Shown here one piece after another: positions 906 to 50,399 of a stretch of 52,629 nucleotides of DNA. The notes under the pieces were generated by a model. The model made no database searches and had not been told where the DNA came from. It worked only from the letters and a program-made list of their open reading frames with translations. The first letter of the stretch is position 1. The number at the start of each line of letters is the position of its first letter. The stretch is from Chloroflexota bacterium (GTDB taxonomy: Bacteria > Chloroflexota > Anaerolineae > Promineifilales > Promineifilaceae). Made by a program: the position numbers and the translations under genes. The stretch is from positions 1-52,629 of the forward strand of contig JAKQCM010000111.1 in NCBI GenBank assembly GCA_029559155.1, in the 5' to 3' direction.

Positions 906-2819
906 ATGGGGAAACGGCCGTTTATCGTCCTGTTAGTCTTCTGTCTGTTGTGGTTAGCGGCGTGCGGAGCGGATGAGCCAGCGGTTTTGCCGACGACAAC
1001 GGCCGTGCCGCCCCAACCAACTGCCACTGCCACCACGCCCCCGACTGCTTTGCCTTCTGCGACGAGGGGGATGACGGAGACGGCCGCGCCAACTCCTACC
1101 GAAACTCCGCCAAGCCCTCTAGCGCATGTATCCGATCTAACTAAACTCCCTGCGATTCCTGTCGATAATTCAAAGACATACAACCTAAAACGCCCCTCCT
1201 ATAAATTTCTGCGCGACTGGTTGCAGGCGGCACGAGAAACACCCATAAGCATTCTACCAAAATACTATATTTTGGATCTGCTGGCCTTCGATTTCGCCCG
1301 CAGTTTTCCAGAAGGCGCCGGCAGTCTTGATCTGATTTTTCAAGAAGACATTTACCATGGCGCATATCTTGATGATGGCGTGACCTGGCCTTTACTGGAA
1401 ACGGCCGTTGTTGCTCATCTCAATCAAAACCAAATCCGCTTTGAAGCCGAAAACCCTATTAACATCTCATCAGGGATAACCCTCGAACCCAAAGCTGTGG
1501 ATTTGGGCGGTGATGGCGTCAGGGAATGGATGGTTAAGGTTAAATCCGATGACTTGCATATCTTGGGTGTGATACCACTAACCATTAATCAATCCGATCA
1601 ATTTGCCATCCTTCCAAACACAATTGAGCCAATAAATACGTCGCTCTTTTTTGACAAAGCTGAAGTTGGTTTTGATTTTGACTTTACGGGTGATGGCAAT
1701 CATGACATTTTGCAAGTCCAGCAAGGATATTTGGGTGGACCGACTGGATACATCAACATTTACACTTGGAATGGTTCGGGGCTATATCTGCTTGAGATGA
1801 TTGATATAACCGCTGGCACACATCGGCCTTTTCCGGCGTTTGAAATATCTGATTTCACCGGTGATGGCGTCATGGATGTGAAAGTCATTACTTCACATGA
1901 ACTCAATTTCGACTGCGACTGGGATGAAGAGGATGTTTACAGTTGGCGAGGTAGTTCGCCACAACATGTACTCATGGATGACTTACCGCCCAACACACCT
2001 GAGTGCGCCATGTTCCATGCCATTACCCCTCAACGCTATTATTCAGAAGCTGTGCTAGCAGAAAAGAGCCGCACAGAACTGCTTGAAGAAGCGTTGAATC
2101 GGCTATCGCTTGAATCGGCGCCTTCTGCGGACTATCTGGCTCTGGGCTATTTGCATTTGGCTATGGCTTATGCAGTTCAAGGAGATCATGCGGCTGCAGC
2201 GGCAGCATTTGCCCACATAAATACCCTTCCCGCAGATTCTCCATTTGTCAAACTTGTTACCGACCTTTACCTAGAAGAAAATTCTGACCTTGCTGCGCTC
2301 TGCCAACGGCTTTATTCTGAACCGGAACTGGCAGATCAAACCGATATCAAACCTTATATCTACGCCGGCTCAATTACAGGGTATTTTGGTCCGGGGAGTG
2401 AAGCCTTTAATCAATTAGCAATTTGCCGATATCCAAGTTTTGAACCCGAACCTGTGGATGAGATCTTCCCTCAAATCCCGTCCAATCAAGCGGAGTCAAA
2501 TCCACCAACGTGGCAGTCTCTGCTGTATGATGTTACGGGGATGTTTGAATGGGAATGGATGAATGAACTGCAAACGGCCGTTCTCACCCAATCCGACCCT
2601 GACATCGCCAGCAAAATAACCGACCTGCTCGCCTACCTGCCCACCGACGAGCCTGAAGCCCAACCCTACATCGAACACCTCACCTACCTGCTCGGCTACC
2701 ATGACGAACTGAGCGGGGATGACGAAACGGCCGTTACCACCTACCTCGCCCTCATCCGCCAAGCCCCCAGCTCCCCCTGGTCCTACCTGGCCTGGGCGCG
2801 GTTAGCGCCAGAAACATGA
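906..2819 (+). CDS. Secreted lipoprotein with FG-GAP/VCBS-like Asp-rich repeats and TPR-like C-terminus
   Basis: MGKRPFIVLLVFCLLWLAACGADEP lipobox, Pro/Thr-rich linker, DFTGDGNHDI / DFTGDGVMDV motifs, C-terminal AxxTYLALIRQAPSSPWSYLAWARL. The ORF track extends upstream to 834; the ATG at 906 precedes the signal peptide. Confidence 0.75.
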   Translation: MGKRPFIVLLVFCLLWLAACGADEPAVLPTTTAVPPQPTATATTPPTALPSATRGMTETAAPTPTETPPSPLAHVSDLTKLPAIPVDNSKTYNLKRPSYKFLRDWLQAARETPISILPKYYILDLLAFDFARSFPEGAGSLDLIFQEDIYHGAYLDDGVTWPLLETAVVAHLNQNQIRFEAENPINISSGITLEPKAVDLGGDGVREWMVKVKSDDLHILGVIPLTINQSDQFAILPNTIEPINTSLFFDKAEVGFDFDFTGDGNHDILQVQQGYLGGPTGYINIYTWNGSGLYLLEMIDITAGTHRPFPAFEISDFTGDGVMDVKVITSHELNFDCDWDEEDVYSWRGSSPQHVLMDDLPPNTPECAMFHAITPQRYYSEAVLAEKSRTELLEEALNRLSLESAPSADYLALGYLHLAMAYAVQGDHAAAAAAFAHINTLPADSPFVKLVTDLYLEENSDLAALCQRLYSEPELADQTDIKPYIYAGSITGYFGPGSEAFNQLAICRYPSFEPEPVDEIFPQIPSNQAESNPPTWQSLLYDVTGMFEWEWMNELQTAVLTQSDPDIASKITDLLAYLPTDEPEAQPYIEHLTYLLGYHDELSGDDETAVTTYLALIRQAPSSPWSYLAWARLAPET

Positions 2820-2917
2820 CTTTAGACATAAACAGGGTTGGCAATTAATAGCGTAAAAGCATGTTACAATAATTGCGCTGTCAATATCCAAAATCTTCGA
2901 TCAGCAAGGATATTAAG

Positions 2918-3157
2918 ATGATGCAAACACTTACCATTGATCAAAAAGGACGCATAAAACTTCCCTGGCAGATGATGGAATCATTAGGCATGAAAGCCGA
3001 TACGGAACTCATTGTTGAAATGACCGAATTTGGCTTATTGCTCAAGCCGAAATCATCCGCTACCCCATTAACCGACCAATTATCAGCAATGGATTTGCCT
3101 GTGGCCGATTGGGAGCAAATGGAACAGGAAACTAACGCTGGACGAATCGCTTCATGA
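2918..3157 (+). CDS. vapB: AbrB/MazE (SpoVT-AbrB) family antitoxin, VapB-like
   Basis: MMQTLTIDQKGRIKLPWQMMESLGMKADTELIVEMTEFGLLLKP swapped-hairpin signature; overlaps the PIN gene by ATGA. Confidence 0.8.
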   Translation: MMQTLTIDQKGRIKLPWQMMESLGMKADTELIVEMTEFGLLLKPKSSATPLTDQLSAMDLPVADWEQMEQETNAGRIAS

Positions 3158-3582
3158 CGGAAGTAGTCTTTTTAGATGCCAATATTTTCATGTATACAGC
3201 GGGCAAACCCCACGCTTATAAGTTGCCCTGCCAGCACATTTTGCAAGCAGTTGAAATAGCCCAATTGCCTGCCGCCACAAATGCCGAGGTACTCCAAGAG
3301 TTGTTGTATCGGTATCATCATCTTCACTTGTTGGATAAAGGGGTGCAGCTTTGCCGGTATATTCTGGATTACCCCTTGATGGTTCTGCCTGTTACGCCAG
3401 CAGACGTATCATCTGCGTTTAATTTGATGTCCCAAAACAATGATACTAACTTGCCCCCGCGTGATGCCATCCATGCGGCTACCATGCAAAACAACAATAT
3501 CACCCGAATTTTGACCGCCGATAAGCATTTTGATCAAATCACTGGTATTCAACGGCTGGATCCGTTGACATTTGCACTGTAA
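3154..3582 (+). CDS. vapC: PIN-domain ribonuclease toxin, VapC-like
   Basis: VVFLDANIFMY...NAEVLQELLYRY...PRDAIHAATM...ILTADKHFDQI: conserved PIN acidic residues; start overlaps the antitoxin stop. Confidence 0.85.
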   Translation: MTEVVFLDANIFMYTAGKPHAYKLPCQHILQAVEIAQLPAATNAEVLQELLYRYHHLHLLDKGVQLCRYILDYPLMVLPVTPADVSSAFNLMSQNNDTNLPPRDAIHAATMQNNNITRILTADKHFDQITGIQRLDPLTFAL

Positions 3583-3684
3583 TCGTTTTCTCTTGTTGCC
3601 AAACGGCCGTTACCTCCTCCTTTCATTTTGCAACAATTACTTGGTTGCCCTTGGAGTTGGTTAACTTGGCACATTGGGGAGATC

Positions 3685-6033
3685 ATGTCACAAAAACGAT
3701 TCATCTTATTCATCATTGTGTTCTTTATGTTCTGGCTGGCAGGATGTGAGCAAGCTGCACCCGAGGTTTTGCCGACGGCAACGGCCGTGCCGCCCCAACC
3801 AACCACCACTGCGACCACGCCCCCGACTGCTTTGCCTTCGCCGACGATTGTGGTGGTGGAAACGGCCGTTGTTACGATGACCAACACACCTGAACCAACA
3901 CCTACTATTGACGCAGAAAGTATTGAAACGCTTTCTTCTCTTTCAAGCCAACTAGAGGAAATAGAGTTCCAATTACGTACACCGTTACCAGATATTCTCA
4001 TGCAAATATTGGCAGCAACATTGGCAAAACAGAAATCTCAAAAAGAATCGCCTGTATCCATGCAATCTGATGTCCTTGAGGCTGAGATTACTTCTCTCTT
4101 CAACCTGATTGAGCGCGATATAAAGAGATTTCACCCACAAGGCTTTTCATCTTCAATAAATTTGAAAACACATCCTTTTGAATGGGATTTTGAATCTCAA
4201 AAAACGCTTTGGGCGGTTTGGCAGGAGTATGCATTGTTTGCACTAAATGAAAGTCAGATAGATTTAGCCAATCAAACAGAAATTGAAACCCCTCTCGCTA
4301 AATTAGCAATTCTAAAAGCCATACAAAAAGATGCCTCTAATTCATCATGGCTCTTACTTATCAATCCTCAATTAGACCCAGAAACATCCTGGTCGTTTTT
4401 CCTGCCAATTACAAAAAATACGGATGGACAATACTATCTTCTGCCAAATGATCTGAAAAACCCCTATGATCCCGAATCCATGAACATTTTAAGTCATGTA
4501 GATGTTACCGGGGATGGGCAGCAAGATATTATCATCGAGATAGGCGGTTTATTCCCTCATCGCCTGGAAGTATATTCTTGGGATAATTTGGGTTTATCGC
4601 TCCTTACGGAAATTGATGCTGAAGATGGTAAATACACAGCATCCCCCCAAATAGAATTTGATGACTTTAATGAGGATGGCGTTGCTGATATACGCTTAAT
4701 TCATCAAAAATGGATGGATTTGGGATGTCAGTATGAGGAAGTAGAATTATATAGCTGGCGCGGAGGAGAACCACAGTACACGCAAACCAGCAATTTGGCC
4801 GATAAACCAGAATGTGACGCAGCCCGAGCCATTACCCAAAATTTGAGTTCACAAAGCATTTACATCGGTGATGTTATCCTTTCTCCTGAAAATTTAAGCG
4901 TGGATGAACGCATTACAATGCTTAACCGCAGTTTGGTAAATACAACAATTGAAACGGCGCCCTTCGTGGATTACATCGCGCTTCTTCGCCTACATTTGGC
5001 AATGGCTTACCAAAGCAAAGGCGAAAATGAATTGGCATTAGCCACAATGACCTCTATGAACGATCTGCCTCAAACAGAGTTTGTCACTGCCATGCAAGAT
5101 ATTTTTCTAGCAACTGATGCGGATCTCGTAGACACTTGCCGTTTAATGTACCAGGATGAATGGTTTCGCAGCTTAGATATGAATGCAAACGAGGATCTAT
5201 TAGCCCAACTTGGCATGTTGCGAAACTATGGCTATCCAACAACAGCTTTACAAAGGCGAATGTGTCCTTTTCCAATGGCAATTGCTGGCTTACTGGAGCG
5301 TTTGAGTTTGCCGGTCAATCTGTCACCTGAAGCTGCATTCGCTCCCAATCACATCGAGATTTTATTCCAGCAGGAATTCAATATTGACGATGATCCAGAA
5401 AATGAATGGCTGGTTATTGTTGAGCCAGCAGCTCCACAAGTTGTGATTTTGGATGCGGTTGACGATACCTGGCAACTTTATCGGTTAACCGAATTGATCC
5501 CACCTGTGACGGATATTCAAGTTCAAGCCATAACTGACACGCTCGATGGAAATCCTTTGCTTCTTTTACAAGCAACACAAAACATTTACTCTTGGTTTTG
5601 CTGGGGGGATCAGCAGTCTGACATACTTACCATTGGATTGTCCGAAGGTGTGTATGGACTGGTAGATCATACGACTGCCTGTGCGGATGAATCGTTACCA
5701 TTACGATCTGATAATTTGGACAATAGCTTTTATGAATCGCCTGCAGATTTCTTTTACAATCAGCAAATCAATCAAATAGAAGAAATGATTTTGGCGGGAG
5801 AACGGCCGTTTCCCGATTTACAAAACAAGCTAAATGATCTGATAGACAAATTGCCCAATGGCACACCTTCTCACCAGATGATGCATAATCGGCTGCTCTA
5901 CCTAAGCGGATTGACTTATGAACTTGCTGGCGATAACAACCAAGCCGTCGCCACCTACCTCTCCCTCATCCGCCTAGCCCCCAGTTCCCCCTGGAGTTGG
6001 CTGGCCTGGGCGCGGTTGGAGCCGGTGGAGTAA
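3685..6033 (+). CDS. Secreted lipoprotein, paralogue of 906-2819
   Basis: MSQKRFILFIIVFFMFWLAGCEQ lipobox; N-terminal VLPTATAVPPQPTTTATTPPTALPSPT and C-terminal ATYLSLIRLAPSSPWSWLAWARL nearly identical to the upstream lipoprotein. Confidence 0.75.
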   Translation: MSQKRFILFIIVFFMFWLAGCEQAAPEVLPTATAVPPQPTTTATTPPTALPSPTIVVVETAVVTMTNTPEPTPTIDAESIETLSSLSSQLEEIEFQLRTPLPDILMQILAATLAKQKSQKESPVSMQSDVLEAEITSLFNLIERDIKRFHPQGFSSSINLKTHPFEWDFESQKTLWAVWQEYALFALNESQIDLANQTEIETPLAKLAILKAIQKDASNSSWLLLINPQLDPETSWSFFLPITKNTDGQYYLLPNDLKNPYDPESMNILSHVDVTGDGQQDIIIEIGGLFPHRLEVYSWDNLGLSLLTEIDAEDGKYTASPQIEFDDFNEDGVADIRLIHQKWMDLGCQYEEVELYSWRGGEPQYTQTSNLADKPECDAARAITQNLSSQSIYIGDVILSPENLSVDERITMLNRSLVNTTIETAPFVDYIALLRLHLAMAYQSKGENELALATMTSMNDLPQTEFVTAMQDIFLATDADLVDTCRLMYQDEWFRSLDMNANEDLLAQLGMLRNYGYPTTALQRRMCPFPMAIAGLLERLSLPVNLSPEAAFAPNHIEILFQQEFNIDDDPENEWLVIVEPAAPQVVILDAVDDTWQLYRLTELIPPVTDIQVQAITDTLDGNPLLLLQATQNIYSWFCWGDQQSDILTIGLSEGVYGLVDHTTACADESLPLRSDNLDNSFYESPADFFYNQQINQIEEMILAGERPFPDLQNKLNDLIDKLPNGTPSHQMMHNRLLYLSGLTYELAGDNNQAVATYLSLIRLAPSSPWSWLAWARLEPVE

Positions 6034-38978: not shown

Positions 38979-39797
38979 TCAGGGCGTTTGCGGCTCCAGC
39001 CAGATGAGGTCAGCCTCGGCCAGTTCGTCCGCTTCTTTGAATAGGGTCGATTTGCGCCCGGCGTTCTGACGGCCGCAGTACACCTGATAGGCGCAATCGC
39101 TGCAAGCAGCCAAATTATCAGTCAATGGCCAAGCATCTGTAGCTAAAGCTGCGTCGATTTGGGCCACGATGGCCTGAATGTCGGCCCAATTTTGCGTGTG
39201 CCAGGCGGATGTGTATTGAATGGTGCGCGGCGTGTCTGGCTCGGCGGCGTACCAGTAGGTCATGCTGACGCGATCAGGAGGAAGCGAACGGCCGTTTCCG
39301 CCCTGCGCCCACAGCGCGCCGTCGCCTTCCGCCAGCAGAGCCAGATAAAGGCGTGTTTGCCAATCCTGCCGCAGTTTGTTTTCGGGCCGCGCTCTACCCG
39401 TTTTCCAATCGAAAACGTGGGCAAAGGGCCGCCCATCGCTCTCGCCGACGACGAGCAAATCGAAGCGCCCCAGCAGCAAGTGGCCGCCCAGCGGCACGGT
39501 AAGCCCGTGTTCAGGCAGGCGCTGGCCGGAGGGAAGCGCCAAATTGCTGGTTCGGAACGCCTGCCACCAATGCTGCACACGGCCGTCGTCAATTTCTTCC
39601 GGCGCGATGTCCAACCCTAAAAAGTGGCGTTCCATCACCCGATGAAACTGCTGCCCGCGAGCCAGTGCCTCTTCAGATTCATCTCCCAGCGGCGCGGCCG
39701 GCCAGGGCAAGCGGCGCAAACTCCGCAGGTAAAAGCGACGCTGGCAGGTCAGAAACGCCTCCAGCTTGCCCTGGCTCAGCAGAAGAGATTGGCTCAT
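38979..39797 (-). CDS. PD-(D/E)XK nuclease family protein (RecB/Cas4-like, probable Fe-S cysteines)
   Basis: LSQGKLEAFLTCQRRFYLRSLRRLPWP; GQQFHRVMERHFLG; VFDWKTGRARPENKLRQDWQTRLYLALL; C-terminal CSDCAYQVYCG. Confidence 0.85.
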   Translation of the reverse strand: MSQSLLLSQGKLEAFLTCQRRFYLRSLRRLPWPAAPLGDESEEALARGQQFHRVMERHFLGLDIAPEEIDDGRVQHWWQAFRTSNLALPSGQRLPEHGLTVPLGGHLLLGRFDLLVVGESDGRPFAHVFDWKTGRARPENKLRQDWQTRLYLALLAEGDGALWAQGGNGRSLPPDRVSMTYWYAAEPDTPRTIQYTSAWHTQNWADIQAIVAQIDAALATDAWPLTDNLAACSDCAYQVYCGRQNAGRKSTLFKEADELAEADLIWLEPQTP

Positions 39798-42700
39798 GCA
39801 GCCTCCGAAAAACCGCCAGAATCCATGTCGGGTCTAATTCTTCCCACCAGGTTTATCAGGTCATTCAAACGATTTTTCTCTTGCGCTGTCACCGCAAGAG
39901 AGCGCCCTTTAGCCGCTTTCGTGCTGCCCTCTAAATCCTCAAAATCAATTTGCAGTTCAAAGGACAATGTTTTTATCTCATCCAAACTAAATTTTTCGTT
40001 CAGTATGGTTGCTACTTGTTTTGCATCTGGCTGGTTAAAGCCAAAAGTGACCGTTGGCGCGTCGCCGACCGTCTGATTAGCGTGGGTGTCGATAGCCGCA
40101 GATTTTTCAGACGCCGGCCGCCTTTGCTGCACCGCTTCGTACAGCTCCGGTAAACGGTTACGCCGTTCCATGTACTGCACCAATTCCAACGCTTTGACAT
40201 ACCGGTTTTCACCTGCCAGATCTTCGTACTGTATACCTAAATCAAAGGCAATCGCTTCGATGTCCGCCATTGTCAATTGGTCGGTAATTTGCCGGTAAAG
40301 CGTCAGGCGATCGATTGATAGCGATTCCTGCATGGTTTGATCAGGCGGCGGTGCAGTCAGGAACGGCCGTTCTTGCCCAACAGCGGCCGCTAAGTCTGGC
40401 AAACGGCCGTTCCGCGCCATCAACGACACTAGATTCTGCACCGTATCGCTTTTGCGGCTGCCAACCAAATCATCGTAATTAAGCTTCAACTTCAGGCACA
40501 AAATTTGGATCTCTTCCAGATTGAACAACGTCATCAACCACTGTGTCAGGGTCTCCGGGCTGGCGCCAGACGATAGGGTTGGGGCTTCTATTTGTGACCG
40601 ATAAACAAAATTAACGCTGGGGCGAGCATCCAAAATGACCAGGGCTAATTCCTGCAACCGGTTCTGGCGCTGGAGCAAGTTAACAAAACTCACCATTTTG
40701 CCGCGCCGCCCCTCGCCCGCCAGATCATCAAATTTAGCTCCCAGCGTAAAGCACAACTCCTGAAAATCATCGAGGGTGAAATTTTCGGTTAACGCCTCGT
40801 AGAGGTCAACGGCCGTTAACTCGCTGCGCCACAAATTACCATGCTCCGTGCTGGTGAACAGGGCCAGGTCTGGGCCGGATTCCTGGCCTTCGGTCCGGCT
40901 CAGGGCGGCGCGGCGCAAATCGGACACGGCCGTATCCAACCACGCGCCTTGCGCCAGCGATTCGTAAAAGGCGGCCAACAACCCAACCAGGAGGTCGTCC
41001 GGCACAGGCGACGGCCAGACCAACACCGCCGGAACGCCAGCCTCAACCAGTTTTTGGGCTGCCAGCAAAACAGGCGACCATTGTTCATTGTTGACGGCCG
41101 TCAGCATCACCAACGCCAATTCGTTCCCTTTTAGCAATGCCGCCAATTCATCCGCAGACGCCAACCACGGCTGCCCGGCGTCATCTTCTAACACCAGGCG
41201 CAGATCGCCCTCTACGTTTGCGGCCAACGCCGCCAGATGCAAAACGTGCACCGGTCCGCCATCCGGCCGCGCTTGCAGCGCCCGGCGGCTGGCAGACCGC
41301 GTAACCGTCAAATTCACCTTGCCCGACAAGCCGGACAACGCCGACTGGACCTGATGAACGAGTTTTTCGGCATCCCAGGGCGCGCCGCTGGTGGGATTGG
41401 CCACAGCCAGCAGCGTTTCGATAGGTTGGGGATTGGCGCGGGTACGGAAAACGGCCGTTTGCCCCGCATAGCGCACCACTGAAATATCCTCGCGCTGCGC
41501 TAAAAAGCCCAGGTCCTTGGCATACAACCACTCCCAGGGCAGCGCCGCCAGATCCGCATCGCCCAACGACAGCCGCAGGCGCAGGCGATTGCCCGCCCGC
41601 TGCGCCTGCTCATAGGCGGCGCGAAACAGCGATTCCACCTCACCCTTGAAAAAGGTCTCAAACAAATCCACGCCAATGGGCTGGCGCGGCGTGCCCTGAT
41701 GGACGCGGCGCAGCTCATCCAAAATGCGCCGGGCCAGCGAATCGCCATCATACACGCTCTTGGGGCGCATTTCTCCGGCAGGCGACGCCAGCACACGCAC
41801 CTCATACGCCTGCCGCTTGGTTCCCGCATCCGCAATGCGCACGTCAAAATTGACATAAACTGTATCCAGCGTATAGGTGGCGTAACGTGCAGCGTTTAGC
41901 AAATCGCGCACCTCGCTGGAGAGGCGGGTGGTGAACAAAAAGCGCAGTCGGGGCACGGCCGTTTGCAGCCGCAAACACACATCCACAATACACGCTTTCC
42001 CCACATAAGACTTGGCCGCGTCCAAATCATCTACCAGCACCACCAGATAATCGGCCATAAAGGGCGATTCATACGGGTCTGTGGGACTAAACGACGATTG
42101 GTACGGGTCCGTGGCGGAGCGATTGGGCAGCGCCAAAAGCCGCTGCAAGGGCTGCGTCAGCAGTTGATCCGTCAGTTCCTCCAGGGTTGCGGCGGCGGGT
42201 GGGTCAGCGGGAAGGAACGTGCGGAACGAGACGAAACGTTCGGCCAGCTGCTGGCTGAGGGCGCGAACGAACAGCTGCGGGTCTACTGTTTCTGGCCGGT
42301 CGTCCTGGCAAAAGTGATAGCCGCCAAAGGTCTGGGCATTCAATGAGAACGATTGGCCGCCGGCTTGCATGGTCTTCACAAAATTGGCCGCCAGATTGGT
42401 TTTGCCGCTGCCCGGCTGCCCGGTAATCACCATGATCGGCGCGTCGCTGGGTTCCGCCAGCCAGCGGGCAATGGCACGCAGCGCGATTTCCAGTTTGCCG
42501 GACACATCGAACATGAGACGGCTAAGGTAATCGTCGAAGTACTGCCGCAGAGCGGCGGCGGTTGTTTCGGGGTTGTCGGTAGGCGGCGGCGGGGTCAGGC
42601 TGCCCAGCAAATCGACTGGCAGGGGCACGGCCGTTTCCCGAATGGCCACATCAGCCGGCGTAGCAAAGTTAGATTGCAAGGTAGACACGGCCGTGGCCAC

Positions 42701-43333
42701 ATCTCCCCGCGCATACGCCGCCAGACTTTCGCTGATGGTTTGCGCGCGGGCAAACTGGGTCTTGGTTTCCGGCTCGGCCGTGTGCCAGTTGACAATGGGG
42801 TAGCTAACCGATTCCACCAGCGAAGCGAAGCGGATCATTTGCGGCGTGGATAACGGCCGTTGATACACCGCATCCAAATAGGCCACCAACTGCTGCGGGT
42901 TGGCAAACGCATACGCCGCCATCCGCTGCGCCTGCCCCAACTCCTGTGCATCCAGATCGTCGCTTATAAAAAACCGGTCGACGTACTGGTCTAAAAATTG
43001 GGCAATCTGCTGAGCGCGTCCCAGGCCAAACCGCTCATTATCGATCAGCTTCTGCGCCAGCACATCTCGAATCGGCTGCTCGATGGCGTACAGTTCGTAA
43101 CCAATCTCCTGGCACAACGGCGACAGCAGCAAATTGGCCACAGCAATCCAGGGGATGTTTAAGGGGAGGCCGTTCACATCCTCGTTAAAGTTAAACCACA
43201 ACGCGTACAGCAAATCAGGCGTCAGGGCCAACGGCAGGGCGGCGTGACAGGCAAAATCCAGGCGCGCTTGCCCGTAACGCTCCGCAAATCGGTCGATGGC
43301 GCGCTGCGCCTGGCGTGTTTTGTAGCTGCTCAT
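39794..43333 (-). CDS. P-loop NTPase with degenerate CHAT-like domain and four tandem effector-associated (EAD) domains
   Basis: Walker A VITGQPGSGKTNLA and Walker B YLVVLVDDLD; CHAT-like LPWEWLYAKDLGFLAQREDISVVRY...VHVLHLAALAAN...LALVMLTAVNN; four C-terminal repeats of type F(T/N/S)LxxhxxLxFxLxhxaxDLxGxxxxxKxxxLhxxxxRxxRLxxLhxxhxxxRP. Confidence 0.82.
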   Translation of the reverse strand: MSSYKTRQAQRAIDRFAERYGQARLDFACHAALPLALTPDLLYALWFNFNEDVNGLPLNIPWIAVANLLLSPLCQEIGYELYAIEQPIRDVLAQKLIDNERFGLGRAQQIAQFLDQYVDRFFISDDLDAQELGQAQRMAAYAFANPQQLVAYLDAVYQRPLSTPQMIRFASLVESVSYPIVNWHTAEPETKTQFARAQTISESLAAYARGDVATAVSTLQSNFATPADVAIRETAVPLPVDLLGSLTPPPPTDNPETTAAALRQYFDDYLSRLMFDVSGKLEIALRAIARWLAEPSDAPIMVITGQPGSGKTNLAANFVKTMQAGGQSFSLNAQTFGGYHFCQDDRPETVDPQLFVRALSQQLAERFVSFRTFLPADPPAAATLEELTDQLLTQPLQRLLALPNRSATDPYQSSFSPTDPYESPFMADYLVVLVDDLDAAKSYVGKACIVDVCLRLQTAVPRLRFLFTTRLSSEVRDLLNAARYATYTLDTVYVNFDVRIADAGTKRQAYEVRVLASPAGEMRPKSVYDGDSLARRILDELRRVHQGTPRQPIGVDLFETFFKGEVESLFRAAYEQAQRAGNRLRLRLSLGDADLAALPWEWLYAKDLGFLAQREDISVVRYAGQTAVFRTRANPQPIETLLAVANPTSGAPWDAEKLVHQVQSALSGLSGKVNLTVTRSASRRALQARPDGGPVHVLHLAALAANVEGDLRLVLEDDAGQPWLASADELAALLKGNELALVMLTAVNNEQWSPVLLAAQKLVEAGVPAVLVWPSPVPDDLLVGLLAAFYESLAQGAWLDTAVSDLRRAALSRTEGQESGPDLALFTSTEHGNLWRSELTAVDLYEALTENFTLDDFQELCFTLGAKFDDLAGEGRRGKMVSFVNLLQRQNRLQELALVILDARPSVNFVYRSQIEAPTLSSGASPETLTQWLMTLFNLEEIQILCLKLKLNYDDLVGSRKSDTVQNLVSLMARNGRLPDLAAAVGQERPFLTAPPPDQTMQESLSIDRLTLYRQITDQLTMADIEAIAFDLGIQYEDLAGENRYVKALELVQYMERRNRLPELYEAVQQRRPASEKSAAIDTHANQTVGDAPTVTFGFNQPDAKQVATILNEKFSLDEIKTLSFELQIDFEDLEGSTKAAKGRSLAVTAQEKNRLNDLINLVGRIRPDMDSGGFSEAA

Positions 43334-44880: not shown

Positions 44881-45867
44881 CTAGGCCTCGTCTTCCTCGG
44901 CTTCCGGCGGGCCGTAGCTGGTGTAATCGGTGAGGGTTTTTAGCAGCACGCTGGGGAAAAGAAGCTCATCGGTGAAGGTGGGCCAGGGCTGCGCTTGCTG
45001 GCGGTAGCGTAATTTCATGATTTTTACCCAGTCGATGAGTTCGCTGGTGGAGACTTTTTTGGCGCTTTTGTCATTTTTCATTTTGAGGCGCAGATTGGCA
45101 AAGGCGGCAACGGCCGTTGCCAAAAATGGCTCATCGGCGGCTTCCAATTCCAGGTGCAGGCTCACGATCTCTTGCAACCGTTTCTGACTGGGGAATTTGA
45201 TGTAGTAAAAGAGGCAGCGGCGCAAAAAAGCGGCCGGCAGCTCTTTTTCGGCGTTGCTGGTGATGAAAATGATGGGCGGGTGCTGCGCCGGGACCAGATT
45301 GCCGATAAGCCCGTCCGCATCGGGCGTTTGCTGATTGTCTTTGGCCGGCGGCAGTTCTTGCACCGTAAACGATCTATCTTCCAATTCATGCAGCAAGTCG
45401 TTGGGGAAATCAATGTCCGCTTTGTCGATTTCGTCGATGAGCAGAACGGCGCGTTTGGGGCTGCGAAACGCCTCGCCCAACGGACCCCAGAGAATATACT
45501 CACGCGGGTTGTCGAATTTTTTGGTGATGCGCTCGCGTTCGGCGTCGCTGAGGCTGCGGTTGGCGGCGAGTTGGGCGTCGCGCAGCCGCCCGATGGTGTC
45601 GTAAATATAGAGGCCGTCCTGCGCCCGGCTGGTGGATTTAACCGGCCATTCAAAGTAAGGCAGGTCGAGTTCGTCGGCTACGGCTTTGGCCAAACGGGTT
45701 TTGCCGCAGCCGGGTTCGCCTTTGAGCAGCAACGGCCGTTCCAGATCAATGGCGATATTGACCGCCTCGATTAAATTGGCGTTGGGGATGTAGGGTTCCA
45801 CAAGCACTTCACGGCCGTTGACCATTTTTCGCAGTCGCTGTTTGCCTTCATATTTTAGAGTCGTCAT
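44881..45867 (-). CDS. MoxR-family AAA+ ATPase
   Basis: LERPLLLKGEPGCGKTRLAKAVADEL Walker A; AVLLIDEIDKADIDFPNDLLHELEDRSFTV Walker B; PIIFITSNAEKELPAAFLRRCLFYYIKFP sensor/Arg-finger region. ATG at 45867 overlaps the upstream stop (ATGA); ORF track start 45879. Confidence 0.93.
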   Translation of the reverse strand: MTTLKYEGKQRLRKMVNGREVLVEPYIPNANLIEAVNIAIDLERPLLLKGEPGCGKTRLAKAVADELDLPYFEWPVKSTSRAQDGLYIYDTIGRLRDAQLAANRSLSDAERERITKKFDNPREYILWGPLGEAFRSPKRAVLLIDEIDKADIDFPNDLLHELEDRSFTVQELPPAKDNQQTPDADGLIGNLVPAQHPPIIFITSNAEKELPAAFLRRCLFYYIKFPSQKRLQEIVSLHLELEAADEPFLATAVAAFANLRLKMKNDKSAKKVSTSELIDWVKIMKLRYRQQAQPWPTFTDELLFPSVLLKTLTDYTSYGPPEAEEDEA

Positions 45868-47822
45868 AATTTCATCCATTTTTTCTGGAGGTCACTCCAT
45901 TCATAATTGCACACACGGCAAAGTTCATCTAAGAGGTAATCGGGCACGCCGTCTTCGGTTTCGTGCAACAGATGGTTGAGCACGGCGTCCAGGGTATTCA
46001 GATTGAGCTTTTCCTGGGCCTGTTCCAGGATAGTGAGGCGGGTACGGCCGTCGCGCAGCCAACCGCGCAGTTCGTTCGGGGGAATTTGCAGAGGCAGAGC
46101 CGGCAAAACAATCGGCGCCAGCGGGTCGGCCAGATCGGCCGGTTGATCTGGCAGGGCGGCCAGCCCTTTGTTGTCGATCATCACCAACAGACACCAGTTG
46201 CCGGAGGCGACGGCCGTTTTGAGTTTGGGCACCAGCGGCTGCCAAAATTCTTGCAGCAGTTTTTGCGGAAACTCCTGGCCCGGAAAACACACATCGTCCA
46301 ATACGATGACCACATCGCGCTCTTGCCAGGCGGCCACCAGACCATGCAAAATATCATCCGGCTCGGCGAGCGGGCTGCCATTGGTTTCCAATTGTTTGCG
46401 CAGCTGCCGCCAAAAAAAGTCGAGCGTGGGCCGATTGAGGCCATTAAAACGGATAGTAATCGGCTTGCAGCGGTCGGTGATGTGCGCGGCGTAATCATCT
46501 TCCAGCTCTTTTTGTACCAGGCGGTTGAGCAGCCAGCGCTGCCCGCAAGCGTCGCTGGGGCCGGTGATGAGGAAGGCGCCGATGCGCGGTTTGTCGAAAA
46601 TATCCAGAAATTTATCGCGCTGCTGGCTGTAATTGAGCGACCAAAGCGCCTCGCGCAGTTTTTGTTCGCCCTGCACGCTGTCTGAGGGCGTGACCTCGGC
46701 GAGGCGGCGTTGGAAGAGACGGCCGTCGGCGACGCGCATGAAGAGGGTGGGGCTGGCGAAATCGTGGGTTTTGTATTGCAAATTGGGGATCAGGCTGATG
46801 GCGCGACGGCCGTCCTGAGCCGCCTGATCGACGGGCATTTCTTCGGCCAGCCGCCGGTAGAAGCGAGAGACAAACCTGGCGGCGGTGAAATCGTTGACGC
46901 GATACTGCATGGCGATGACGACGGGGATGTTTTGCTGCAAAACGCGGGAGGCGACGCCGGCGAAGGCTGTGGTAGCCGACAATCGGCCCGATTCCTGCGC
47001 TTGCAGCACGACCACAGCCGGCCGATATTGGTTGAGCAGGTCGCTGAAATAATCCTCATCCACCCACAAGGCAGCGCCGTTGTTGCCCAGCAGGGCAATT
47101 TCGCCAACGTCACGGCCGTTTTTGGGGGTGAGACGGCCGTGGCCGACGAAGTGGAAAAAGTGGGGCGATTGGCTGAGAAGTTGGTCAATGTTGTCGGGCG
47201 TGGCGGCGGTGACAATGGGCAGCAGTTGGACGCTGCCCGACATTTCTTTGGCCCAACTGTCGATTTCGTTGAGCAGGTTTTGGTAAGCGATGGCCGGTTC
47301 GTCGGCCGGCGCAGCGATAACGACCGCCAGGCGTAATTTTTCGTCTTTGTCGAGGGTGATGGGTTTGGGCGGGAAGCGCTGGCGCGGACGCCGTGAGAAG
47401 ATGACCTGCGCGGCCGTCGACAGCCAAAACGTAGGCAAATTGGAGCCGATGGGAATGCGCATAAATTCCCAGGGCAGGGCGGCGATTTCCGGTAGGGCGG
47501 CTTCGTCGATATCGAGTTCGAGGCGGAGGAGTTGATTTTGGGCGTGAACGGCCGTTTCGTACAGGTTAGCCAGATCGAGGAGCAGGGGCGCGTCGAACAG
47601 GGCCTTAAACAAAGCTTCACCCAGGGCGGGCACGTCGGCGGCGGCGAGTTGCAAGTTTTGGGCAGTGGCAACCAGTTGGTCAATCTGCTGACGCAGTGGG
47701 CCGGCGTAGGTCAATGCGCCTTCGGGTTCTAACAACAACCTTCCATCGGGGTCGCGGATTTCCCCTTTGACCTTGTCCTGGGTGAGGACAGATATACGAA
47801 AGGTGTAGTAGCCCTGAGTCAT
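45864..47822 (-). CDS. CHAT-domain protein fused to a degenerate (inactive-looking) STAND/AAA NTPase; CHAT Cys replaced by Gln
   Basis: LPWEFMRIPIGSNLPTFWLSTAAQVIFSRRPRQ; FHFVGHGRL His motif; VVLQAQESG where VVLNACQSG is expected; P-loop-like GPSDACGQRWLLNRLV lacks GK[ST]; DVVIVLDDV. Confidence 0.82.
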   Translation of the reverse strand: MTQGYYTFRISVLTQDKVKGEIRDPDGRLLLEPEGALTYAGPLRQQIDQLVATAQNLQLAAADVPALGEALFKALFDAPLLLDLANLYETAVHAQNQLLRLELDIDEAALPEIAALPWEFMRIPIGSNLPTFWLSTAAQVIFSRRPRQRFPPKPITLDKDEKLRLAVVIAAPADEPAIAYQNLLNEIDSWAKEMSGSVQLLPIVTAATPDNIDQLLSQSPHFFHFVGHGRLTPKNGRDVGEIALLGNNGAALWVDEDYFSDLLNQYRPAVVVLQAQESGRLSATTAFAGVASRVLQQNIPVVIAMQYRVNDFTAARFVSRFYRRLAEEMPVDQAAQDGRRAISLIPNLQYKTHDFASPTLFMRVADGRLFQRRLAEVTPSDSVQGEQKLREALWSLNYSQQRDKFLDIFDKPRIGAFLITGPSDACGQRWLLNRLVQKELEDDYAAHITDRCKPITIRFNGLNRPTLDFFWRQLRKQLETNGSPLAEPDDILHGLVAAWQERDVVIVLDDVCFPGQEFPQKLLQEFWQPLVPKLKTAVASGNWCLLVMIDNKGLAALPDQPADLADPLAPIVLPALPLQIPPNELRGWLRDGRTRLTILEQAQEKLNLNTLDAVLNHLLHETEDGVPDYLLDELCRVCNYEWSDLQKKWMKL

Positions 47823-47878: not shown

Positions 47879-49291
47879 TCAGGCCAGGGCTGCTGCCCAA
47901 TCAACGGATTGACGAGCAGTGTATAACCCTTGCCAAAGGTCTGACACTTTGCCGTGACGGCGGCAGTGGTTCGCCAGTTCCTGCGCTTTCAGAGAGATGG
48001 TGCCACCATTCAAATCATCATAATCCACGCCGATAGAGGTGCTAAAGGCGCGTAATTCTTCGTCGGAGAAATTCTCCTTGATTAACCGCCCCAGGCTCGC
48101 TACCTGCGGCAACGTCAGGGTTGCAGGTGCAGGCGGCGTTTTGATCGAAGAACCATTATTTTGAGGTTTGCCGGACCTTGCAAACAAATGCCCATCGGCC
48201 ACGCGCATGAAGAGGACAGGGGTGGCGAAATCGCGCCTTTTGTATTGGGTGTTGAGGGCGACGGCGCGACGGCCGTACTGCGCCGCCATATCCACCGGAT
48301 CCCCTACCGCCAGTTGCTGGTAGAACTTCAGGGCAAAGCGAAGCGCCGTATTATTGGTCACTTCATATTGCATCGCCACCACGACAGGGATATTTTGCTG
48401 GACCACCCGCGAAGCCACGCCCACAAAGGCTTGAGAAGCGGAAAGCGTGCCGCCTTCACAGGCGTGGAGCAGCACCACGCCAGGCCGGAACGTGTTGAAC
48501 AAACCGGCAAAAAATTCGGAATCCACCCAGTCGGATTCGCCCATAATGTCGTCCACAAAAGCTATCTCGGCTTTAGGCGTATGGTTTTCGGTATTGAAAC
48601 GGCCGTGTCCAATAAAATGAAAAATGTGCGGCTTTTTCGCCAGCAAACTATCAACCGTTTCAGCATTTGCCTTAAGCAAAACCGGCAGCAGTTCAAATTT
48701 GTCGCTCTGCTCAGCAGCTAATGTTTTCAGGCTGGCTTCCACTTTATCATAAAGTACCGGGCCTAAATCAGAAGGGGCAGCGACCGCCAGGGCAATGCGC
48801 AATTTCTCGTTTGGGGCCAATTGGATAGGTTTAGCCGGAAACCACTGCGCGCGCCGCCGGGAAAAAACAACTTTGGGGGTTGTCCCTAACCAGAGAACCC
48901 CTAAATTTGCCTTGCTGGGCACACGCATAAACTCCCAGGGCAGGGCAGCTACATCAGGCATAGAAGCTTCGTCAATATCTAGCTCAATGCGCAAAATCCG
49001 ATCTTCCGTAGCCACAACCTGCTGGTAAAAACCAACAAAATCCTGCCGCAGCACATCATCAAACAACGCGTCAAACAGCGCCTCACCCAACGCCTTCACC
49101 GGCTCATCATCCGTCAGGGCATCGGCTTGTGCTTCAATCACTAGTTTGTCGATGGTTTGGCGCAACTCATTGGCATAGCCGAATTTACCTTCCGGATCAC
49201 CCAGGCTTTGATTGTTTAAGTCGCGCTTTTCAACCTTTACCGATCCGTAGTTGGCCAGGCGAATCCGGTATGTGTAGTATGCGTTGCTCAT
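47879..49291 (-). CDS. CHAT-domain (caspase-like) protein with intact His/Cys and one C-terminal EAD
   Basis: LPWEFMRVPSKANLGVLWLGTTPKVVFSRRR; FHFIGHGRF; VVLLHACEGGTLS; C-terminal LIKENFSDEELRAFSTSIGVDYDDLNGGTISLKAQELANHCRRHGKVSDLWQGL. Confidence 0.85.
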   Translation of the reverse strand: MSNAYYTYRIRLANYGSVKVEKRDLNNQSLGDPEGKFGYANELRQTIDKLVIEAQADALTDDEPVKALGEALFDALFDDVLRQDFVGFYQQVVATEDRILRIELDIDEASMPDVAALPWEFMRVPSKANLGVLWLGTTPKVVFSRRRAQWFPAKPIQLAPNEKLRIALAVAAPSDLGPVLYDKVEASLKTLAAEQSDKFELLPVLLKANAETVDSLLAKKPHIFHFIGHGRFNTENHTPKAEIAFVDDIMGESDWVDSEFFAGLFNTFRPGVVLLHACEGGTLSASQAFVGVASRVVQQNIPVVVAMQYEVTNNTALRFALKFYQQLAVGDPVDMAAQYGRRAVALNTQYKRRDFATPVLFMRVADGHLFARSGKPQNNGSSIKTPPAPATLTLPQVASLGRLIKENFSDEELRAFSTSIGVDYDDLNGGTISLKAQELANHCRRHGKVSDLWQGLYTARQSVDWAAALA

Positions 49292-49397: not shown

Positions 49398-50285
49398 TTA
49401 CTTTCCCGGCAATGTGATAACCCACTCTTCCCCAGCGCCCCGAGACAGCTTTTGCGCAAGTGCATCCGGGCGATTGAAGAGCTTTTTAAATCCTTCTGAT
49501 AAACGCTCGATGACATTGCCCATATTAGCCGTAAACCAGCTCACTTTTGGCTCCGCCCAGGCCATCCCTTTGAGCGTGATAGAAGTTGTGCCTTTTTTGA
49601 CCTTGAACACCACGCCGAACTTTGTCGATAAAGATTGTTGCAAATCGGCATCCTGAATGTACCAATAACATTCCGAATTCCCGTCGCCATAGGCCGCAAT
49701 TTCAAATTTGCCCAGATCATAAGAGAAATCATTCACAACAATGTACGATTTCATCTCGTTCTTATTGTCTAACCCTGCTTTTACGGCCGCCGGTAAATTA
49801 AGCAGCGCCGCCATTTTTGTAGCGTCCACGCCAACGTTCCAATCCAGGTTCCCATCCAGGCCTAATCGCATACCGCCGCCAAACGCCATCACGTCTTTCC
49901 ACTCGCTATGTGGGAAAATCGTTTGGACAATCGGCTCATGTTCACCTTTTGGTCCAAAATCCAGCTCGCAGGCCAAAGCCTGAAAATGAGCGCCGGGCTG
50001 CGGGCGCAAATCGACGGTAATGGTCATATAGTAAAAATCGTATTCGTTTTGAATTTGTTGTTTGCGGATGCTGCTGAGTTCAAGGCCGGAATCATGCAAT
50101 TCTGCCTCTGTGAGGGCTATCAAGTTATCTCGGGGGTTGCCGAATTGGACTTTGGTTTGTTTTAAGCTGTCGATGCGGTCGGTAATATCCAATTGTTGCC
50201 CACCGGCAAGATGGCTTGCGCCATATAATTCATCGAGCAAATCGTCTGCCTGCTGCAAATCAGGGGAAATAGGTTTATCGGGCAT
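49398..50285 (-). CDS. Uncharacterised protein, first gene of the CHAT/MoxR/vWA block
   Basis: ORF from MPDKPISPDLQQADDLLDELYG...; no family recognised. The ORF-track start at 50360 reads through ACGGCCGT copies and is less likely. Confidence 0.65.
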   Translation of the reverse strand: MPDKPISPDLQQADDLLDELYGASHLAGGQQLDITDRIDSLKQTKVQFGNPRDNLIALTEAELHDSGLELSSIRKQQIQNEYDFYYMTITVDLRPQPGAHFQALACELDFGPKGEHEPIVQTIFPHSEWKDVMAFGGGMRLGLDGNLDWNVGVDATKMAALLNLPAAVKAGLDNKNEMKSYIVVNDFSYDLGKFEIAAYGDGNSECYWYIQDADLQQSLSTKFGVVFKVKKGTTSITLKGMAWAEPKVSWFTANMGNVIERLSEGFKKLFNRPDALAQKLSRGAGEEWVITLPGK

Positions 50286-50399
50286 CAGTTTAACTCCTGT
50301 TGAATCAATAAAAGAAACGGCCGTTTCCCACCACCATCTCGTTAACGGCCGTTTCCCCACATAAAAACTATCTTAATCAGTTCACCAATCCATTGTCAA

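What the first reader, a model, noticed from the sequence alone, without database searches (positions are those of the whole stretch)
49398..50285. Uncharacterised 295-aa protein leading the CHAT operon, preceded by a paired palindrome
I recognise no family in MPDKPISPDLQQADDLLDELYG...YDFYYMTITVDLRPQPGAHFQALACELDFGPKGEHEPIVQTIFPHSEWKDVMAFGGGMRLGLDGNLDWNVGVDA.... As first gene it could be the sensor, substrate or effector (for example a CHAT-cleaved protein). Two AACGGCCGTTTCCC copies lie just upstream (about 50317 and 50345) and may mark the promoter region.
Basis: inference. Interest (0 to 1): 0.6.

Follow-up and report, generated by a model that had tools for sequence, protein, structure and literature searches.

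The report
Protease-paired protein in defence operon
The first gene of this predicted bacterial immune operon belongs to an unnamed protein family that almost always sits next to a working caspase-like (CHAT) protease, so it is probably that protease's target or switch, and its predicted shape hints that it may punch holes in membranes.

Summary
In detail: 295-aa ORF (49398-50285, minus strand, ribosome-binding site AGGAG), and two exact AACGGCCGTTTCCC copies. The protein matches no Pfam, NCBIfam, PADLOC or PHROG family, but it is not an orphan. I found 14 members, in Chloroflexota and on two cyanobacterial plasmids. In 11 the adjacent downstream gene is a CHAT protease with catalytic His and Cys intact; two lack CHAT and one lies at a contig end. 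The two families co-vary (mirror-tree r 0.92 over 7 lineages). The window operon is an iSTAND-type MoxR-vWA ternary conflict system. It matches gene for gene an operon on an Anabaena plasmid, with the 295-aa protein at its head. Elsewhere the pair heads different operons, so it looks like a portable module. Best explanation (inferred): the protein is a protease-controlled substrate or pro-effector of the CHAT enzyme. A fold model of one relative most resembles leukocidin/hemolysin pore formers (Foldseek E 5e-5, but TM only about 0.3; no sequence support), so a protease-gated pore former is possible but unproven. The promoter idea is not supported: AACGGCCGTT is a HIP1-like repeat present about 2,500 times in this genome.

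The parts
49398..50285 (-). 295-aa protein of an unnamed family: N-terminal helical region, beta-rich core, C-terminal helix
   Evidence: ORF; homologues; AlphaFold models
47879..49291 (-). 470-aa CHAT protease with C-terminal EAD7; His and Cys motifs intact (HFIGHGR, LLHACEGG)
   Evidence: Pfam (CHAT 3e-18, EAD7 1.6e-14); motifs
45864..47822 (-). 652-aa CHAT-iSTAND protein; the CHAT has lost its Cys (LQAQESG), a predicted pseudoprotease
   Evidence: Pfam (iSTAND 1.4e-22, CHAT 4e-17); motifs
44881..45879 (-). MoxR-type AAA ATPase, 332 aa
   Evidence: Pfam; 46% identical to the Anabaena plasmid MoxR
43330..44781 (-). CoxE-type vWA protein, 483 aa
   Evidence: Pfam VWA_CoxE 2.4e-7; 30% identical to the Anabaena counterpart
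39794..43333 (-). 1179-aa effector protein: N-terminal linker shared with the Anabaena FGE protein, P-loop NTPase, degenerate CHAT, four EAD7
   Evidence: Pfam (EAD7 x4, 6e-58); linker homology (32% over 182 aa)
50314..50355 (.). inverted repeat GAAACGGCCGTT/AACGGCCGTTTC with 18-nt loop, made of two copies of the genome-wide AACGGCCGTT palindrome

Best explanation
The 295-aa protein is the dedicated partner of the catalytically intact CHAT (caspase-like) protease encoded just downstream, and most likely its substrate: a soluble, inactive pro-protein that the CHAT enzyme cuts when the MoxR-vWA-iSTAND ternary system senses an invader, releasing a beta-rich effector that disables the cell. Shown here: the family, its conserved place beside active CHAT genes, co-variation with CHAT, the iSTAND ternary setting, and a sequence without transmembrane helices. 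Inferred: that CHAT cuts it, that the cut activates rather than destroys it, and that the product acts on the cell (possibly on the membrane).
For: Eleven of 14 members have CHAT as the adjacent downstream gene, ten on the same strand and usually 11-106 bp away. All these CHATs keep His and Cys, whereas the window's two other CHAT domains, not adjacent to the gene, have lost Cys or both. Partner and CHAT identities co-vary: r 0.98 over 11 loci; r 0.92, p 0.0014 over 7 lineages. The pair occurs in operons of different make-up: iSTAND ternary (window, L004), TPR-FHIPEP (L015, L029-L032), zinc-ribbon CHAT (L015, L020), and beside a GAF-domain gene (L005). The protein lacks an EAD of its own, so it is not recruited by EAD pairing; a direct CHAT-partner contact is the simplest link. 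In L033 CHAT and the downstream genes were deleted while the partner stayed, so it is harmless alone, as a pro-protein would be. Precedents: caspase- or trypsin-activated pro-nucleases (PMC12799240) and the CHAT protease of Craspase (PMC9729208).
Against: No cleavage site was found and no cleavage was tested. Adjacency and co-variation fit a CHAT regulator or sensor equally well, and shared vertical descent contributes to co-variation. One member (L013) has no CHAT within 8-9 kb on either side. The Planktothrix CHAT is convergent, so not in the same operon.
Confidence: 0.45

Rival explanations
1. Regulatory or sensing partner: the protein binds the CHAT protease and controls it (inhibitor, activator or invader-sensing adaptor) and is not cut to become an effector.
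For: Same linkage and co-variation. A caspase-partner protein of this kind exists in Canu (CanB forms a complex with the CanA caspase; PMC12799240). Beta-sandwich folds often bind ligands, and many Foldseek matches are generic adhesion or receptor sandwiches.
Against: The partner is kept after CHAT loss in L033 and exists without nearby CHAT in L013, which is odd for a pure CHAT regulator unless it serves another CHAT in trans.
Confidence: 0.27
2. Protease-gated pore former with a leukocidin/hemolysin-like fold (a special case of the best explanation): CHAT cleavage frees a beta-hairpin stem that inserts in the cell's own membrane, much as caspase-cut gasdermins do.
For: The better fold model (L034 relative, pLDDT 66.5) has staphylococcal gamma-hemolysin and leukocidin AB as its two best PDB matches (E 5e-5 and 1e-4, probability 1.00) and clostridial beta-toxin fourth. 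A central 22-39-residue segment is 61% Gly/Ala/Ser/Thr/Val/Asn, 11% charged, variable in length and flanked by strands, the place and composition expected of a stem.
Against: TM-scores are only 0.25-0.37 with rmsd 8-22 A. Pfam Leukocidin does not match any member, nor do PDB sequences. The poorer window model has pore formers only among chance-level matches. The amphipathic-strand signal is no better than shuffled sequence. No hydrophobic N-terminal segment that could be a signal peptide. The segment itself is modelled at pLDDT about 30.
Confidence: 0.2
3. Unrelated housekeeping or mobile-element cargo gene that happens to lie beside CHAT.
For: Two members without CHAT nearby (L013, L033).
Against: Eleven CHAT-linked loci in two phyla, and the same six-gene order in Chloroflexota and on an Anabaena plasmid.
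Confidence: 0.03

Closest known systems
iSTAND MoxR-vWA ternary conflict systems (Kaur et al. 2020, PMC7159879)
   Same: iSTAND protein with fused peptidase-like domain, MoxR, CoxE-type vWA, separately encoded linker-effector gene, EADs
   Different: A sixth gene at the head, the 295-aa partner, is not named in the sections read; the CHAT fused to iSTAND is catalytically dead, and the active CHAT is a separate EAD7 protein
Canu and other nuclease-protease pairs (PMC12799240)
   Same: A two-gene protease plus partner module that joins different immune systems; in the trypsin pairs the pro-effector is typically the upstream gene
   Different: The partner here has no MBL nuclease domain; the protease is of CHAT type
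Bacterial gasdermins with caspase-like proteases
   Same: Gene pair with a caspase-like protease; possible membrane target
   Different: No gasdermin match by sequence or among listed fold hits; longer N-terminal region; no N-terminal Cys
Craspase TPR-CHAT with its Csx30 substrate
   Same: CHAT protease acting on a dedicated operon-encoded partner (from general knowledge of the system)
   Different: No type III-E CRISPR genes in this operon; no sequence match among solved structures
Leukocidin/hemolysin beta-pore formers (PF07968)
   Same: Best fold match of one family model; central low-charge stem-like segment
   Different: No sequence match, no secretion signal, low TM-score

Membership tests
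iSTAND MoxR-vWA ternary system | iSTAND third component | tested here: met
   PF19995 E 1.4e-22 in the 652-aa protein; E 2e-11 in the Anabaena counterpart
iSTAND MoxR-vWA ternary system | MoxR ATPase next to a CoxE-type vWA protein | tested here: met
   46% and 30% identity to the Anabaena genes
iSTAND MoxR-vWA ternary system | signalling or peptidase domain or EAD N-terminal to iSTAND | tested here: met
   CHAT N-terminal to iSTAND, though without catalytic Cys
iSTAND MoxR-vWA ternary system | effector attached to vWA by a linker domain, or on a neighbouring gene | tested here: met
   1179-aa protein shares its N-terminal 182 aa with the Anabaena FGE protein at the same position
Leukocidin/hemolysin family | PF07968 profile match | tested here: not met
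   none of 12 members at E up to 10
Leukocidin/hemolysin family | fold | tested here: inconclusive
   Foldseek E 5e-5, probability 1.00, but TM 0.30-0.37
Leukocidin/hemolysin family | pore formation | not testable with these tools
   needs a leakage assay
Bacterial gasdermin | gasdermin sequence or fold | tested here: not met
   no Pfam match, none in the 50 listed fold matches
Bacterial gasdermin | N-terminal Cys for lipidation | tested here: not met
   N-terminus MPDKPISPD
Canu caspase-nuclease | MBL-type nuclease partner | tested here: not met
   no Pfam match
Csx30 (Craspase substrate) | sequence relation to any solved structure of it | tested here: not met
   profile searches of PDB sequences find no credible relative
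CHAT-cleaved substrate (any) | cut by the neighbouring CHAT | not testable with these tools
   needs a cleavage assay

The most novel reading that the evidence does not exclude
A new class of immune effector in multicellular-type bacteria: a hemolysin-fold beta-pore former, made inside the cell as an inert pro-protein and freed by a CHAT caspase-like protease, which has spread as a two-gene module among ternary and other conflict systems.
Probability: 0.2. Interest if true: 0.82.

Novelty: new variant of a known kind. Interest (0 to 1): 0.5.

Why it matters
For most CHAT proteases in bacterial immune operons the target is unknown (general knowledge). A conserved partner gene beside active CHATs in two phyla gives a concrete candidate that can be tested by co-expression. 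If the partner forms pores after cleavage, it would be a second caspase-to-pore route in bacteria besides gasdermins.

Tried and rejected
Family libraries: no match for the window protein or relatives in Pfam, NCBIfam or PHROGs, nor for the window protein in PADLOC. PDB sequences: nothing credible. Viral contigs and phage records: no relative. First fold model (window protein, pLDDT 52): no significant fold match. Amphipathic-strand scan: no better than shuffles. Leukocidin family in 201 Chloroflexota genomes: none, so no yardstick for a profile-profile test. Promoter role of the palindrome rejected.

Full report
Observation. The 295-aa ORF is at 49398-50285 on the minus strand with an AGGAG ribosome-binding site. 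It heads six closely spaced genes: 295 aa; CHAT-EAD7 (470 aa); CHAT-iSTAND (652 aa); MoxR ATPase (332 aa); CoxE-type vWA (483 aa); and a 1179-aa protein with a P-loop NTPase, a degenerate CHAT and four EAD7 copies. This is an iSTAND-type MoxR-vWA ternary system as described by Kaur et al. 2020 (PMC7159879).

The repeats. Both AACGGCCGTTTCCC copies exist, but AACGGCCGTT is a highly iterated palindrome: 29 in the window (0.1 expected), 94 ACGGCCGT (1.0 expected), and 2,520 in the genome against 28 for the reversed control. Six relatives, one in the genus and five in the family, have about 1,900-3,700 copies, while other family members have 4-149. This resembles HIP1 of cyanobacteria (PMC4390886). 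The copies at this locus are therefore no specific promoter mark. Together they form a 12-bp inverted repeat between the upstream ABC-transporter gene and the operon, conserved in the 97% relative with changes in the loop.

The family. No library names it. Relatives: L002 (same operon, 97%); Anabaena cylindrica plasmid pANACY.03 (43-44%); Planktothrix agardhii p1 (39%); and the Chloroflexota genomes G116, G279, G634, G577, G697, G680, G675, G693, G684 and G705. The family is rare: 3 of 400 genomes in the phylum sample, but 7 of 11 in one family.

Linkage. CHAT is the adjacent downstream gene in the window, L002, L004, L005 (convergent), L015, L020, L029, L030, L031, L032 and L034. L013 has none nearby. 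In L033 the CHAT and following genes are deleted; only 34 residues of the last one remain, and the partner stays. L014 begins 58 bases upstream of the chosen start codon, so one side is not visible (family set; sequence). All partner CHATs keep the His and Cys motifs, while the window's other two CHAT domains do not. Identities of partner and CHAT co-vary (r 0.98 over 11 loci; r 0.92, p 0.0014 over 7 lineages); shared descent contributes to this. The Anabaena operon corresponds gene by gene: 43% (295 aa), 50% (CHAT), iSTAND by Pfam, 46% (MoxR), 30% (vWA) and 32% over the N-terminus of the last gene, whose effector part is swapped for an FGE domain. The adapter differs too: EAD7 in the window, an EAD9-like coiled coil shared by CHAT and iSTAND proteins in Anabaena.

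Structure. The window model is poor (pLDDT 52). The model of the G705 relative (20% identical to the window protein) has pLDDT 66.5 and pTM 0.61, with a beta-rich core mostly at 70-90. The other four models of that job had pLDDT 43-47, so the result rests on one model. Its best PDB matches are gamma-hemolysin (E 5e-5) and leukocidin AB (1e-4), both with probability 1.00, and clostridial beta-toxin fourth (5e-3); TM-scores are 0.25-0.37. A central segment rich in Gly/Ala/Ser/Thr/Val/Asn (61%), poor in charge and variable in length, sits where hemolysins have their stem (stem position from general knowledge of the family). Alternation of hydrophobic residues was not above shuffled sequence, and there is no sequence match to hemolysins. 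I hold the pore reading at 0.2.

Mechanism. Shown: a conserved partner of active CHATs inside an iSTAND ternary system, without its own EAD, and soluble by sequence (no 19-residue stretch above 1.33 on the Kyte-Doolittle scale in any member). Inferred: CHAT cuts it on invader sensing and the product acts on the cell. The module logic matches the protease plus pro-effector pairs of PMC12799240. The rival, a CHAT regulator or sensor, is nearly as compatible with the data.

Limits. I could not sample cyanobacteria broadly, could not see the source-data tables of Kaur et al. (the family may be listed there without a name), and could run only two structure predictions. The number of CHAT genes per genome was not counted, so no formal chance level for the adjacency is given; with CHAT genes a small minority of genes, 11 adjacent cases in about seven lineages is far beyond chance (inference).

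Noticed in passing
whole window and genome; e.g. 652, 913, 40362, 45109: AACGGCCGTT is a HIP1-like highly iterated palindrome in this Chloroflexota family: 2,520 copies in the genome against 28 for the reversed control, 1,900-3,700 in six relatives, 4-149 in other family members. No paper in the held library joins such palindromes with Chloroflexi.
   Followed up: partly
45864-47822 and 39794-43333: Two of the three CHAT domains of the operon are catalytically degenerate (Cys to Gln; both motifs absent), so they are likely pseudoproteases or scaffolds.
   Followed up: partly
L033 6939-7244: Natural deletion of CHAT, TPR-FHIPEP and most of the third gene next to a retained partner gene; 34 residues of the last gene remain.
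   Followed up: partly
L029 7877-11416; L015 3673-7368: In these operons the gene after CHAT encodes TPRs plus a domain matching FHIPEP (FlhA C-terminal region, E about 1e-22 to 1e-24), in one case after a weak TIR match; no flagellar genes were seen nearby.
   Followed up: no
L004 15869-17581 and 17613-18692: CHAT and iSTAND proteins of the Anabaena plasmid share a 74% identical coiled coil (EAD9-like), an adapter pair replacing EAD7 of the window.
   Followed up: no
L004 14684-14896: A small DNA-binding-type protein lies just upstream of the Anabaena partner gene, a possible regulator that the window lacks.
   Followed up: no
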